Positions 21,168 through 25,458 of a stretch of DNA of 64,000 nt are shown one piece after another; positions within the stretch are counted from its first letter, which is position 1, and the number at the start of each line of letters is the position of its first letter. The notes beneath the pieces were generated by a model, which searched no databases, was not told the origin of the DNA, and saw nothing but the letters and a program-made list of their open reading frames with translations. A program made the translations under genes and the position numbers. The stretch is from Bacteriovoracaceae bacterium (lineage in GTDB: Bacteria; Bdellovibrionota; Bacteriovoracia; Bacteriovoracales; Bacteriovoracaceae), in assembly GCA_024711325.1 (NCBI GenBank), contig JANJTC010000005.1, positions 1,454,172 through 1,518,171 of the forward strand, read 5' to 3'.

Positions 21168-21755
21168 ATGGAAAGTATGTTTTTTAAAGCTTTTGTCTCA
21201 TTGTTTGTGGCCATCGATGCTGTAGGGGCCTTGCCATTTCTGGTAGGTCTCACTAAAAATCTTAATGCTGCCGAGAAAAAAAGCCTGATTTATCGGGCCA
21301 CCGGCTCGGCATTCTTTATTGGTCTCACATTCATTTTTGGTGGCCGTGCCATTTTTAATTTTCTTGGCATTACAGAAAGCGACTTTCGTGTTGCCGGTGG
21401 TTTACTTCTCATTGTTTTTTCCATCCGAGATCTTTTAGATTCTTCCAGTCATCAAGGGGCCCCTGCTCCAACCCGTGTAGGGATTGTGCCGATTGCCGTC
21501 CCTTTAATGATGGGGCCTGCTGCTTTGGCCACATTAATGGTGGGGATAGAACAATATGGCCCGGTAACCACTATTCTAAGCCTGACATTAAATCTCCTCA
21601 TTGTGTGGTTACTTTTCTCACATGCTGGAAAAATTGTTAAGGTTCTGGGTGATGATGTGAGTGATGCTGTTAATAAGGTTTTTTCTCTCTTGATCGCTGC
21701 GATTGGAGTGATGCTGGTCCGCTCAGGGCTAATTGAAATGTTCGGTCTTAATTAA
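21168..21755 (+). CDS. MarC-family integral membrane protein
   Basis: VAIDAVGALPFLVGLT, IVPIAVPLMMGPAALATLMV; start moved from 20790 to avoid antisense overlap with PLD gene. Confidence 0.87.
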   Translation: MESMFFKAFVSLFVAIDAVGALPFLVGLTKNLNAAEKKSLIYRATGSAFFIGLTFIFGGRAIFNFLGITESDFRVAGGLLLIVFSIRDLLDSSSHQGAPAPTRVGIVPIAVPLMMGPAALATLMVGIEQYGPVTTILSLTLNLLIVWLLFSHAGKIVKVLGDDVSDAVNKVFSLLIAAIGVMLVRSGLIEMFGLN

Positions 21756-22569
21756 CCCGGATATAGGATTTTTTCAAAGCCTCAAAGATCATTCTGCCTT
21801 CTTTAGATTTAATCATTTCTGGATAACATGTTAGCGACAAATGATCTTTAAAGGTCGGGCCTTTATTGACTTTCTTTAGGTTCAGTTTCTGGGACTTCAC
21901 GACCTGTGATGGTATAATTCCATATCCAGCACCAGAATTCGTCAGATGAGCAATGAGTTCCAGATTCTGCACTTCCACTGTTTCTCCGGGGGCCTCTTTC
22001 CAACGAGAGATAATGGAGTGGGCCTGGAGCATTTGAGGGTTGTAGATTAATTTAGACTGATATCTATTTTTCGATTCCCATACACACACATCATCTTCAC
22101 CGATTGATTTAATGATGAGACCTTGAATCTGTAGTGGATTCATAACAATCCCAAAGTCAATCGAACCCTGGGCCACCATTTTATTTATTTCATTCGAGGA
22201 TGAATTGATAATTTCCATGCCTACTTCCGGGGCCTCTAGATGCATATATTTTAAAAAATCACCCAGAACAAACATTCCGACTGATGGGTGACAGCCAATT
22301 CGAAACTTTAAGCTTGTTTTTTTACCCTTGATCTTATTCAGAACCGCCAAGGCTTCCTGAGCTTCTGGTAATAGTTTTTTTCCTTGTGGAGTAAGTTTCA
22401 CTCCTTCGCGGCTACGAATGAAAATAGGGTAACCCAATTCTGCTTCAAGTTTTTGGATGCCTAAAGACAGTGAGGGTTGCGCCATATTGAGCTTTTCAGA
22501 AGCTTCTGAGAGTGTCTTCGACTTAGAAGTCACAATGAAATTTTCCAGGTCTTTAAACGTGATACTCAT
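21748..22569 (-). CDS. LysR-family transcriptional regulator
   Basis: N-terminal LysR HTH FKDLENFIVTSKSKTLSEASEKLNMAQPSLSLGIQKLEAELGYPIFIRSREGVKLTPQG; divergent to isonitrile synthase. Confidence 0.93.
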   Translation of the reverse strand: MSITFKDLENFIVTSKSKTLSEASEKLNMAQPSLSLGIQKLEAELGYPIFIRSREGVKLTPQGKKLLPEAQEALAVLNKIKGKKTSLKFRIGCHPSVGMFVLGDFLKYMHLEAPEVGMEIINSSSNEINKMVAQGSIDFGIVMNPLQIQGLIIKSIGEDDVCVWESKNRYQSKLIYNPQMLQAHSIISRWKEAPGETVEVQNLELIAHLTNSGAGYGIIPSQVVKSQKLNLKKVNKGPTFKDHLSLTCYPEMIKSKEGRMIFEALKKSYIRVN

Positions 22570-22669
22570 GTATATGCCTTTACCTATGGTAGTTATAGTT
22601 ATTATAGCATTAATAAATGATCTTGAGGCATGTATCAATAGGTAGAAAATCTTTTACAAGGATACAGGG

Positions 22670-23572
22670 ATGACCATTTTGACCCAAATCAGCGAAATCT
22701 TAAAAGAATACTCCTTTCACCTTGAAGAAGTCTTTGTGAGTGAGGTTCCCTTATTTAAACATATCGCTACCCGCATGAAGGAAGAACGGGAACTGGTGTT
22801 CCTGTTGCCGGCCTTCCCGGCAAAAAGTCCCAGTCCTTCAAAAACCTTGGGGCAACTACCGGACCTGGGTGAGGTTCTTGCCTTGCAGAATCTACAAAAA
22901 CTCTGTGACAGGATTTCAAAGATCTATAGTCCAGGCGCTAAAATAATCATTTGTTCAGACGGAAGAGTCTTTAGTGATGTCGTTAGAGTTAGTGATGAAA
23001 GTATCACTCTTTATCAGGAAGGGATTAAAGATATCATTCAGGAGTTTAAACTTCACAGATTAGAGATATTTGCTCTGGATGATCTATACCCGGAGCTTGG
23101 AGGCGATGAACTCCGAGAGCGCCTTTTAAAGCAGTTTTCAAGGACACAGGAAGAATTAAGACTTTTAGTAAGAAATCAAGAAGATTATAAAAAGCTTTTT
23201 AATGGTCTCCACAAATTCCTCTTGGAGGATGAGCTCTCAATAAATAAGTTTTCGTCTAAAAATCAGATTGCCAAAGAGACTAAAGAGAGGACTTATGAAC
23301 TCATGCGCAGGTCCGATGCATGGTCGGAACTGATTAATCATTATTTTAAAGATAAGTTGCGTTTATCTATCCATCCTTATCATCCAGAGCATGAAAAATT
23401 TGGAGTCAAGCTTGTTGCCAGTTCGAGTAAGTGGGCAACTCCCTGGCACAATGTAACGGTAAAAATCAAAGATAAGTTTGAGCTGATGCACCTAAGAGAT
23501 GCTTTAAAATTGCAAGTGATGCCTAAGATGATGAAGGACAAATATGCTTATTTTGAAATCGCAGAATTTTAA
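22670..23572 (+). CDS. Isonitrile (isocyanide) synthase, DIT1/PvcA/IsnA family
   Basis: FPAKSPSPSKTLGQLPDLGEVLALQNLQKLCDRISKIYSPGAKIIICSDGRVFSDVVRVSDESITLY is the family core. Confidence 0.92.
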   Translation: MTILTQISEILKEYSFHLEEVFVSEVPLFKHIATRMKEERELVFLLPAFPAKSPSPSKTLGQLPDLGEVLALQNLQKLCDRISKIYSPGAKIIICSDGRVFSDVVRVSDESITLYQEGIKDIIQEFKLHRLEIFALDDLYPELGGDELRERLLKQFSRTQEELRLLVRNQEDYKKLFNGLHKFLLEDELSINKFSSKNQIAKETKERTYELMRRSDAWSELINHYFKDKLRLSIHPYHPEHEKFGVKLVASSSKWATPWHNVTVKIKDKFELMHLRDALKLQVMPKMMKDKYAYFEIAEF

Positions 23573-24212
23573 TGATGAAGCATTAATTGAATTTGCTCAA
23601 GGCCTGAGTTCCAAAACAGGGGAGCTTAAGGATAAACTTTTACATTGGGAGTTTGGTCCGATTATGCATATGAAGTATGATGTTAAGGCCAGTAACTATC
23701 TTTTTTCAAATGAGTCCGTTCCCTTCCACTGGGATGGTGCTTTTTATCGTGAACCCCATAAACTACTGTTCTATTGCACTCATACTGAAGGCATTGGTGG
23801 TGAAACGCTTTTCACAAATACAGAAAAAATCTGGGAGAGTTTAACTTTAAAGGAGCAAAAGGAATGTAGGAAGCTCATCATGGTTTATCGTACTGAAAAA
23901 CGTGCGCACTATGGTGGAGAGATTCAAATACCTTTAGTTCAAAAGCATCCTTTCACTGGTAAAACCATCTTACGCTTGGCCGAAAAAGTTGAAACATCAC
24001 TTAATCCAGTTGAACTTAAGATACTGGGATCTGCGAACTCTTCTGGCATTTATCAATTATTAAGAAAAAAGCTGTATGACCCAAGATTCCTTTACCTGCA
24101 CCGATGGGAAGTAGGGGACGTGGTGATTTGCGATAACTTTACCTATCTTCACGGTAGAAAACCTCTTGGTCAAAACACCGGTAGAAGCTTTAAACGCATA
24201 CAAATCCTATAA
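23544..24212 (+). CDS. Fe(II)/2-oxoglutarate dioxygenase, TauD/PvcB/IsnB-like
   Basis: HxD motif in VPFHWDGAFYREP and distal LHGRKPLGQNTGRSFKRIQ; overlaps upstream isonitrile synthase by 29 nt. Confidence 0.85.
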   Translation: MLILKSQNFNDEALIEFAQGLSSKTGELKDKLLHWEFGPIMHMKYDVKASNYLFSNESVPFHWDGAFYREPHKLLFYCTHTEGIGGETLFTNTEKIWESLTLKEQKECRKLIMVYRTEKRAHYGGEIQIPLVQKHPFTGKTILRLAEKVETSLNPVELKILGSANSSGIYQLLRKKLYDPRFLYLHRWEVGDVVICDNFTYLHGRKPLGQNTGRSFKRIQIL

Positions 24213-24222
24213 GGAGAATAAG

Positions 24223-25458
24223 ATGTCTAAAATAACCCGAAATGGTGAATCTTTTCTGGATTTTAAGAAAAGATCCAAAACCACTGATTTTCCGACTTCA
24301 TTTTGTCATTATATACAGAATTTTGGAGAGATTTATTTTTGGGAAAAGGGAAATTTCCATGTCATTACCAAGGCCCACCATGCTCGGGAGATTTTGACCA
24401 GCGATGCTTTTAGTGCAGACCGAAGTTCTTTTTTTATCTCTCGAATGCCTAAACTTGATCTTAGTTTAATTCCTGATTTTTTTGGAATCGTAAGTAAGAT
24501 GATGGTGATGAGTGATGATCAGGCCCATGGCAAAAGAAGAAATCTGGCCGCTCATGGTTTTGAAGATCAGGTCCTCGAAAGGTTTTCGGAAAAGCTTCTT
24601 TGGACCGTTAAATTCTTGCTGGAAGAAATAAAAAATAAAAAAGAAGTGGAATTTGTTGAAAGTGTTGCAAAAAAGCTTCCTTCCTTAATCCTGGCCGACC
24701 TTTTTAGCATACCAGTGGAAGAGCGGGAGCAGTTTATTAAATGGTCGAACACCATGACTGGCTTCTTCGGTGGGGCCTCTCAATACAGAAACGAAGACGG
24801 CATTGAAGTCAATCAGGCCGCTCTCTCTCTTAAGCATTACTTTACAAAACTGATTGAAGATCGAAAACAAACTCCCGGTGAGGACTATGTGTCGCTATTA
24901 CTGAATTCGCCTGAAATAGAAAACTTTAGTCATGATGAAGTCCTCTCTCAGCTTATCATGATGTTAGTGGCGGGAATGGCAACAACTACAGACCAGATTA
25001 GTAATATTATGTTTCAATTGGCGACCCATCCTGAAATACAGAAAGAAGTCCGTGAGAATAAGAATTTGATTCCTTCGATGATAGAGGAATGTAAACGGTT
25101 TGATCCTGCTGTTACTTTTATTTTTCGGGTGGTACGAAAAGAGACGTCGATCGGGGAACAAACAATGGACATTGGTGATGTTGTGTTTATCTCAACTCAT
25201 GCAATCAATCGGGATATGAACTCCGAGCTTGCGCCCGATATTTTGAACATTCATCGGAAGGGGACTCATTTTGCTTACGGGTATGGTGCTCATTATTGCA
25301 TCGGGGCCAGGCTGGCACGGATGGAAATGAAGGTACTATTTGAAGAATTACTCATTGGCCTACCCCCTTTTGAACTGGATCAGTCTAAAGATTCAATACG
25401 AGATCATTACTCCTTATCTTTTTCTGGTTTTCAACAACTTAACCTTATAATCAACTGA
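24223..25458 (+). CDS. Cytochrome P450
   Basis: I-helix MLVAGMATTTDQ, ExxR EECKR, heme loop FAYGYGAHYCIGARLARMEM; RBS aaggagaat. Confidence 0.93.
   Translation: MSKITRNGESFLDFKKRSKTTDFPTSFCHYIQNFGEIYFWEKGNFHVITKAHHAREILTSDAFSADRSSFFISRMPKLDLSLIPDFFGIVSKMMVMSDDQAHGKRRNLAAHGFEDQVLERFSEKLLWTVKFLLEEIKNKKEVEFVESVAKKLPSLILADLFSIPVEEREQFIKWSNTMTGFFGGASQYRNEDGIEVNQAALSLKHYFTKLIEDRKQTPGEDYVSLLLNSPEIENFSHDEVLSQLIMMLVAGMATTTDQISNIMFQLATHPEIQKEVRENKNLIPSMIEECKRFDPAVTFIFRVVRKETSIGEQTMDIGDVVFISTHAINRDMNSELAPDILNIHRKGTHFAYGYGAHYCIGARLARMEMKVLFEELLIGLPPFELDQSKDSIRDHYSLSFSGFQQLNLIIN

What the first reader, a model, noticed from the sequence alone, without database searches (positions are those of the whole stretch)
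21748..25458. Compact LysR-regulated isonitrile biosynthetic cluster: PvcA/IsnA + PvcB/IsnB-like + cytochrome P450
Seen directly: a divergent LysR gene, then three tightly packed genes (29-nt overlap, then a 10-nt gap) encoding a DIT1/PvcA-family isonitrile synthase with its full core motif, a short (222 aa) Fe/2OG oxygenase with HxD and distal His, and a P450 with intact heme loop, ExxR and AGxxTT helix. Established: PvcA/IsnA makes an amino-acid-derived isonitrile, PvcB/IsnB oxidises/decarboxylates it, and pvc-type loci can carry a LysR regulator; yeast DIT1/DIT2 pairs the same synthase family with a P450 for dityrosine wall. Inference: this locus makes an isonitrile or isonitrile-derived aromatic product with a dedicated P450 tailoring step, possibly a cross-linked or metal-binding metabolite. 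If the host is a predatory Bdellovibrionota, the combination would be notable.
Basis: partly seen in the sequence, partly recalled or inferred. Interest (0 to 1): 0.85.

Follow-up and report, generated by a model that had tools for sequence, protein, structure and literature searches.

The report
Isonitrile gene cluster in predatory bacterium
Four adjacent genes in a Peredibacter-like (predatory-lineage) bacterium look like a compact, conserved recipe for a reactive isonitrile compound finished by its own cytochrome P450; the same gene set was already noted in Legionella, but its product is still unknown.

Summary
22670-23572 is a DIT1_PvcA isonitrile synthase (ICS, 243 bits), 23544-24212 a short PvcB/PIsnB-like Fe/2OG oxygenase (AlphaFold model closest to PIsnB bound to tyrosine isonitrile, TM 0.81), 24223-25458 a P450, and 21748-22569 a divergent LysR gene. 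The host falls in the genus of Peredibacter starrii (Bdellovibrionota).

The cassette is real and old. The same order recurs in Bacteriovoracaceae, one Bdellovibrio, Parachitinimonas, 17 Legionella loci, gammaproteobacterial MAGs and a cyanobacterium, and the three enzymes co-diverge (Mantel r 0.90-0.95). Over 379 Bdellovibrionota genomes, all 17 with this P450 clade also carry an ICS (46 do), even P. starrii, where the P450 lies elsewhere. At least 24 other ICS loci carry an FAD monooxygenase in the P450's slot.

Most likely: an aromatic amino acid becomes a vinyl isonitrile, which the P450 oxidises. P450 chemistry (oxygenation or dimerisation) and substrate (Tyr or Trp) are undetermined. The P450 clade lacks the usual I-helix acid in 26 of 26 members.

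The Legionella version was published in 2016 (PMC5126622) without a product, so this is a new member of a known, uncharacterised kind. The P450/FAD split across the phylum appears undescribed in the papers held.

The parts
21748..22569 (-). LysR-type regulator, divergent, 273 aa (ATG at 22569)
   Evidence: Pfam HTH_1 and LysR_substrate; 64-98% identical orthologues divergent from the same ICS in most Bacteriovoracaceae P450-type loci, a more distant one in Parachitinimonas caeni; dN/dS 0.019
22570..22669 (.). Divergent intergenic region, candidate LysR operator: TTACCTATG beside the LysR start
   Evidence: TTACCTAT(G) is kept in 9 of 10 compared intergenic regions, including P. caeni; it could instead be part of the LysR ribosome-binding site; untested
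22670..23572 (+). Isonitrile (isocyanide) synthase, PvcA/IsnA/DIT1_PvcA family, 300 aa
   Evidence: Pfam DIT1_PvcA 242.9 bits; phmmer to PvcA 3e59 7.7e-54 and to 9dh4/9dhm; the only ICS in the genome
23544..24212 (+). Short Fe(II)/2-oxoglutarate oxygenase, PvcB/PIsnB-like, 222 aa
   Evidence: TauD 106.5 bits; nearest PDB by sequence PIsnB 7tcl 3.7e-32; AlphaFold pLDDT 92.7, Foldseek top hit 7tcl TM 0.81, 2.1 A
24223..25458 (+). Cytochrome P450, 411 aa, ATG start behind an AAGGAG ribosome-binding site
   Evidence: Pfam p450; Cys359, Glu289, Arg292 invariant in 26/26, acid position 253 is V/A/I in 26/26; AlphaFold pLDDT 86.8, P450 fold

Best explanation
A LysR-controlled operon for a small isonitrile metabolite. 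Step 1 (inferred from family): the ICS joins the amino nitrogen of an aromatic amino acid (Tyr or Trp) to a carbon of ribulose-5-phosphate, giving an isonitrile amino acid. Step 2 (inferred from conserved active site and fold): the Fe/2OG oxygenase desaturates it, most likely with loss of CO2, giving an aryl vinyl isonitrile as PIsnB and WelI3 do. Step 3 (inferred from linkage and co-occurrence): the dedicated P450 oxidises that intermediate; I lean slightly to oxygen insertion rather than coupling, because a flavin monooxygenase fills the same slot in sister clusters. Probable role: a copper- or haem-protein-binding or antibacterial compound. The chemistry of step 3 and the role are not shown.
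For: ICS: Pfam 242.9 bits, PvcA 7.7e-54. 2OG: facial triad plus the PIsnB residues that hold the substrate carboxylate (W74 = W35, G104 = G65, R265 = R218) and model TM 0.81 to PIsnB with tyrosine isonitrile. WelI3, which makes a decarboxylated vinyl isonitrile in vitro (PMC4236562), shares this enzyme's HWDGAF and LRxAE signatures (wel context). The P450 belongs to the pathway: same order and packing in all 37 trio loci found (some genomes fetched twice, some loci end at contig edges), co-divergence r 0.90-0.95, 17/17 clade-P450 genomes are ICS genomes among 379, unlinked but retained in P. starrii. FAD_binding_3 occupies the slot in 24 other ICS loci. Purifying selection.
Against: I found no reported product for any cluster of this type. 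The published selectivity markers give no call: PIsnB-type has K/R at 107 and N/H at 188, PvcB-type L and C; here the 188 position is Ala and the 107 position lies by a one-residue deletion. The ICS scores 216 bits against the PvcA equivalog cut-off of 600, so Tyr specificity is not supported. No transporter, resistance gene or redox partner lies in the cluster.
Confidence: 0.8

Rival explanations
1. The P450 oxidatively dimerises two vinyl isonitriles into a xanthocillin-like diisonitrile, as proposed for XanG in the fungal xan cluster.
For: Same three activities as the xan core (PMC5974471); the P450 clade lacks the I-helix acid in 26/26, a hint of unusual P450 chemistry; a phenol-coupling P450 (DmlH, 8w6z) is among the structural neighbours.
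Against: Nearest folds are mostly fatty-acid and steroid hydroxylases; the equivalent slot in sister clusters is a flavin monooxygenase; relation to fungal Dit2/XanG was not tested.
Confidence: 0.3
2. The oxygenase is PvcB-like: it keeps the carboxylate and makes an isocyanoacrylate, which the P450 hydroxylates or cyclises towards a paerucumarin-like coumarin.
For: Neither PIsnB marker is cleanly present; PvcB is the next nearest relative; the pvc pathway also adds ring hydroxyls.
Against: Position 188 is Ala as in WelI3, a decarboxylating enzyme, not Cys as in PvcB; sequence and fold are nearer to PIsnB.
Confidence: 0.15
3. The ICS-like protein acts like yeast Dit1 and makes an N-formyl amino acid, which the P450 cross-links.
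For: Dit1 may not be an isocyanide synthase (PMC7345447); Dit2 is a P450.
Against: A PvcB-type oxygenase is always present here and is absent from dit; the solved relatives found are PvcA and other bacterial isonitrile synthases.
Confidence: 0.05

Closest known systems
Legionella isnA-isnB-P450 cluster with HTH regulator (PMC5126622, Fig. 3L)
   Same: HTH/LysR, ICS, 2OG oxygenase and P450 together, all three enzymes homologous (about 39, 42 and 46% mean identity between Legionella and Bacteriovoracaceae)
   Different: Legionella oxygenases are mostly 250-261 aa, the window's 222; the adjacent Legionella LysR is only distantly similar; neither product is known
Bdellovibrionota ICS-2OG-FAD_binding_3 cluster (found here)
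   Same: ICS and 2OG oxygenase in tandem followed by one oxidative enzyme, in the same phylum
   Different: Flavin monooxygenase in place of the P450; 278-aa oxygenase with the PIsnB markers R107/N188; never seen with the P450 type in one genome
Rhabduscin isnA/isnB (Photorhabdus, Xenorhabdus)
   Same: ICS plus PIsnB-type oxygenase
   Different: Glycosyltransferase and no P450 (own knowledge); one B. bacteriovorus strain (L041) carries both a P450 and a glycosyltransferase
pvcABCD (paerucumarin, Pseudomonas aeruginosa)
   Same: ICS plus PvcB-type oxygenase
   Different: PvcC/PvcD flavin hydroxylase system, no P450 (own knowledge)
xan cluster (Aspergillus fumigatus)
   Same: ICS, 2OG and P450 activities together
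   Different: ICS and dioxygenase fused, fungal P450, extra tailoring and protection genes (PMC5974471)
wel/amb/hpi isonitrile genes (Fischerella)
   Same: WelI3 shares HWDGAF and LRxAE with the window oxygenase
   Different: Large hapalindole-type clusters, two ICS genes, Trp substrate, no related P450 next to them

Membership tests
DIT1_PvcA isocyanide synthases (PF05141) | Match over the curated cut-off, full-length domain | tested here: met
   242.9 bits vs 26.4, profile 3-264/273
PvcA L-tyrosine isonitrile synthase (NF045653) | Score over the equivalog cut-off | tested here: not met
   216 vs 600 bits: a homologue, not an assigned tyrosine enzyme
PvcA L-tyrosine isonitrile synthase (NF045653) | Makes tyrosine isonitrile | not testable with these tools
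   needs an enzyme assay
PIsnB/PvcB Fe/2OG desaturases | HxD...H iron site and carboxylate-holding W, G and R | tested here: met
   H62, D64, H203, W35, G65, R218 aligned to PIsnB H101, D103, H250, W74, G104, R265
PIsnB/PvcB Fe/2OG desaturases | Jelly-roll fold nearest to PIsnB/PvcB | tested here: met
   pLDDT 92.7, 7tcl rank 1, TM 0.81
PIsnB-type (vinyl isonitrile) subgroup | K/R at 107 and N/H at 188 (PMC9467999) | tested here: inconclusive
   188 is Ala; 107 is Tyr or, by gap placement, Arg. The known vinyl-isonitrile enzyme WelI3 also has Ala at 188
PvcB-type (isocyanoacrylate) subgroup | Leu at 107 and Cys at 188 (PMC9467999) | tested here: not met
   Tyr/Arg and Ala
Cytochrome P450 superfamily | Haem Cys loop and ExxR | tested here: met
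   C359, E289, R292 invariant in 26/26
Canonical P450 monooxygenases | I-helix acid-alcohol pair AGx[D/E]TT | tested here: not met
   acid position V15/A10/I1 of 26; alcohol kept
Legionella-type isnAB-P450 cluster | HTH regulator, isnA, isnB, P450 together | tested here: met
Paerucumarin pvc cluster | PvcC/PvcD flavin hydroxylase genes in the cluster | tested here: not met
   no such gene adjacent
dit cluster | DIT1 with DIT2 P450 and no 2OG oxygenase | tested here: not met
   2OG oxygenase present and conserved
xan cluster | ICS-dioxygenase fusion with P450 XanG | tested here: not met
   separate genes, no fusion

The most novel reading that the evidence does not exclude
Bdellovibrionota predators use two interchangeable isonitrile pathways (P450-type and flavin-type), and the P450 type makes a dimeric, xanthocillin-like diisonitrile with an acid-less P450, used as a copper-binding or prey-directed compound.
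Probability: 0.2. Interest if true: 0.75.

Novelty: new member of a known kind. Interest (0 to 1): 0.48.

Why it matters
Isonitriles bind copper and haem proteins and can be potent antibacterials. Finding a compact isonitrile pathway in 46 of 379 sampled genomes of a phylum known for bacterial predators, in two mutually exclusive versions, points to a small-molecule side of that lifestyle that the papers held here do not mention. It also gives a minimal three-gene system, shared with many Legionella, on which the unknown P450 step can be tested directly.

Tried and rejected
Extra cluster genes: the flanks (MarC, PLD, Ada/AlkA on one side; HD-GYP response regulator on the other) are shared only with the closest relative and differ elsewhere, so they are not part of it. 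Anti-phage defence: no PADLOC match. Structured RNA in the window: no Rfam match. Truncated 2OG gene: rejected, because the short form is shared by many genomes and folds with high confidence. Viral or plasmid spread: the viral scan gave no answer twice; plasmid hits are below 40% identity. Selectivity markers as a product call: inconclusive. Legionella-wide co-occurrence could not be run. The TTACCTATG element as operator: not separable from a ribosome-binding site.
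Full report
WHAT IS THERE. The four genes are as described. The isonitrile synthase (ICS) at 22670-23572 scores 242.9 bits against DIT1_PvcA, the oxygenase at 23544-24212 106.5 bits against TauD, the P450 at 24223-25458 80.3 bits, and the divergent gene at 21748-22569 has both LysR domains. 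The two ORF listing start codons that differ from mine (LysR TTG 22638, P450 TTG 24166) are mechanical: an ATG with a Shine-Dalgarno site lies at 24223. The genome holds one ICS and four P450s. Against the closest relative the four genes show dN/dS of 0.02-0.15.

HOST. Peredibacter starrii (named protein P0051 on a contig of 4,153,408 bases; the same length as the single contig of G015) is listed in the window's own genus. The host is therefore a Peredibacter-like member of the Bdellovibrionota; this is inference from contig length and the kinship table. Whether this particular species preys is not shown.

THE ENZYMES. The ICS is nearest among solved proteins to PvcA (7.7e-54) and to two recent isonitrile synthase entries, but misses the tyrosine equivalog cut-off by far (216 vs 600 bits), so Tyr versus Trp is open. 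The oxygenase is nearest to PIsnB (7tcl, 3.7e-32) and then PvcB. Its residues H62, D64, H203, W35, G65 and R218 correspond to the iron ligands and substrate-carboxylate contacts described for PIsnB in PMC9467999. Its AlphaFold model (pLDDT 92.7) matches PIsnB bound to tyrosine isonitrile first (TM 0.81, 2.1 A). It is only 222 aa because the N-terminal part of PvcB/PIsnB is missing; this is normal for its clade.

PRODUCT OF STEP 2. PMC9467999 proposes K/R at 107 and N/H at 188 for vinyl isonitrile makers, and L and C for isocyanoacrylate makers. The P450-type oxygenases have Ala at 188 and a one-residue deletion by 107. WelI3 also has Ala at 188: locus L105 from Fischerella sp. PCC 9431 carries what I read as Dxr, two ICS genes, the oxygenase, a WelP1-like gene, Dxs, IspG, DAHP synthase, TrpE and TrpC in a row (my reading of the ORFs), and that strain's wel cluster, and WelI1/WelI3 activity from a related strain, are published (PMC4236562). 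So Ala is compatible with decarboxylation to a vinyl isonitrile. I take this as the more likely outcome, unproven.

THE P450 BELONGS TO THE PATHWAY. (i) All 37 loci found with all three genes have the order ICS-2OG-P450 on one strand, with gaps of -56 to +77 bases; five of them repeat genomes fetched by another route and a few end at contig edges. (ii) In 30 less redundant trios the pairwise distances of ICS, oxygenase and P450 correlate at 0.90-0.95, no permutation of 2000 reaching this. (iii) In 132 genomes of the host family the P450 clade occurs in 13, all among the 18 ICS genomes (hypergeometric 2.7e-14). In 379 genomes of the phylum, 17 genomes hold it at over 520 bits and all 17 are among the 46 ICS genomes; an eighteenth hit at 261 bits is much weaker and has no ICS (1.3e-17). 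These probabilities ignore shared ancestry. (iv) In P. starrii the P450 lies 590 kb away, yet is kept at 69% identity.

A SECOND TYPE. In ICS genomes without this P450, the third gene is an FAD_binding_3 monooxygenase. tblastn finds it directly after the oxygenase in 24 loci; 17 genomes are P450-type and 5 could not be decided because the contig ended or the locus was not fetched. No genome examined has both next to the ICS. The FAD-type oxygenases carry the PIsnB markers (R107, N188). The shared slot favours an oxygen-inserting role for the P450. The rival, oxidative dimerisation as proposed for XanG (PMC5974471), stays open: the clade lacks the I-helix acid in 26 of 26 sequences (V, A or I at 253) while keeping the threonine, ExxR and Cys. 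This trait is only a hint of unusual chemistry.

DISTRIBUTION. Named genomes with the trio: a Bacteriovorax stolpii MAG, other Bacteriovoracaceae, Parachitinimonas caeni, Bdellovibrio bacteriovorus kdesi (followed there by a glycosyltransferase), 17 Legionella loci, two other gammaproteobacterial MAGs and Scytonematopsis contorta. On the ICS tree the trio label needs 6 changes against 21.8 in shuffles; two of the 'no P450' rows are a contig end (L021) and the P. starrii relocation (L024), and the cyanobacterial trio falls among non-P450 ICS (quick tree, several long branches).

REGULATION. Nine of ten divergent LysR-ICS intergenic regions, including that of P. caeni, hold TTACCTAT(G) beside the LysR start. 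It may be an operator or part of the LysR leader.

WHAT IS KNOWN. PMC5126622 (2016) states that in Legionella an HTH protein and a P450 are always associated with isnAB. No paper held combines Bdellovibrionota with isonitrile synthesis, but most subscription papers are not held. I therefore call it a new member of a known, chemically uncharacterised kind.

SHOWN versus INFERRED. Shown: gene identity, conserved active sites, gene order, co-occurrence, the P450/FAD split, the missing acid. Inferred: every reaction, the substrate, the product, its role in predation or copper biology.

Noticed in passing
L014, L015, L017, L135, L138-L140, L143-L158: A second, commoner Bdellovibrionota isonitrile cluster: ICS, 278-aa PIsnB-type oxygenase and an FAD_binding_3 monooxygenase, never found together with the P450 type.
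   Followed up: partly
L041:6963-12010: Bdellovibrio bacteriovorus strain kdesi carries LysR, ICS, 2OG, P450 and a UDP-glycosyltransferase overlapping by 4 nt: a rhabduscin-like addition to the P450 cluster.
   Followed up: partly
window 29179-30063: IS-like transposase-type ORF without a Pfam match; absent at the same place in the closest relative (L019), 73% identical copy in L017. Looks like a recent insertion.
   Followed up: partly
window 44253-45584: A second P450 gene in the window, unrelated to the cluster P450 (14 bits); the genome has four P450s in all.
   Followed up: partly
window 17495-19401: Ada-type protein (metal-binding, AraC and AlkA domains fused) overlapping a methylguanine methyltransferase-like gene: alkylation repair pair.
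   Followed up: no
L105:8782-9603: WelI3 has Ala where the published PIsnB-type rule expects Asn or His (position 188), so the rule in PMC9467999 may need a third class.
   Followed up: partly
window 22570-22669: TTACCTATG element kept next to the LysR start across genera, including a betaproteobacterium.
   Followed up: partly
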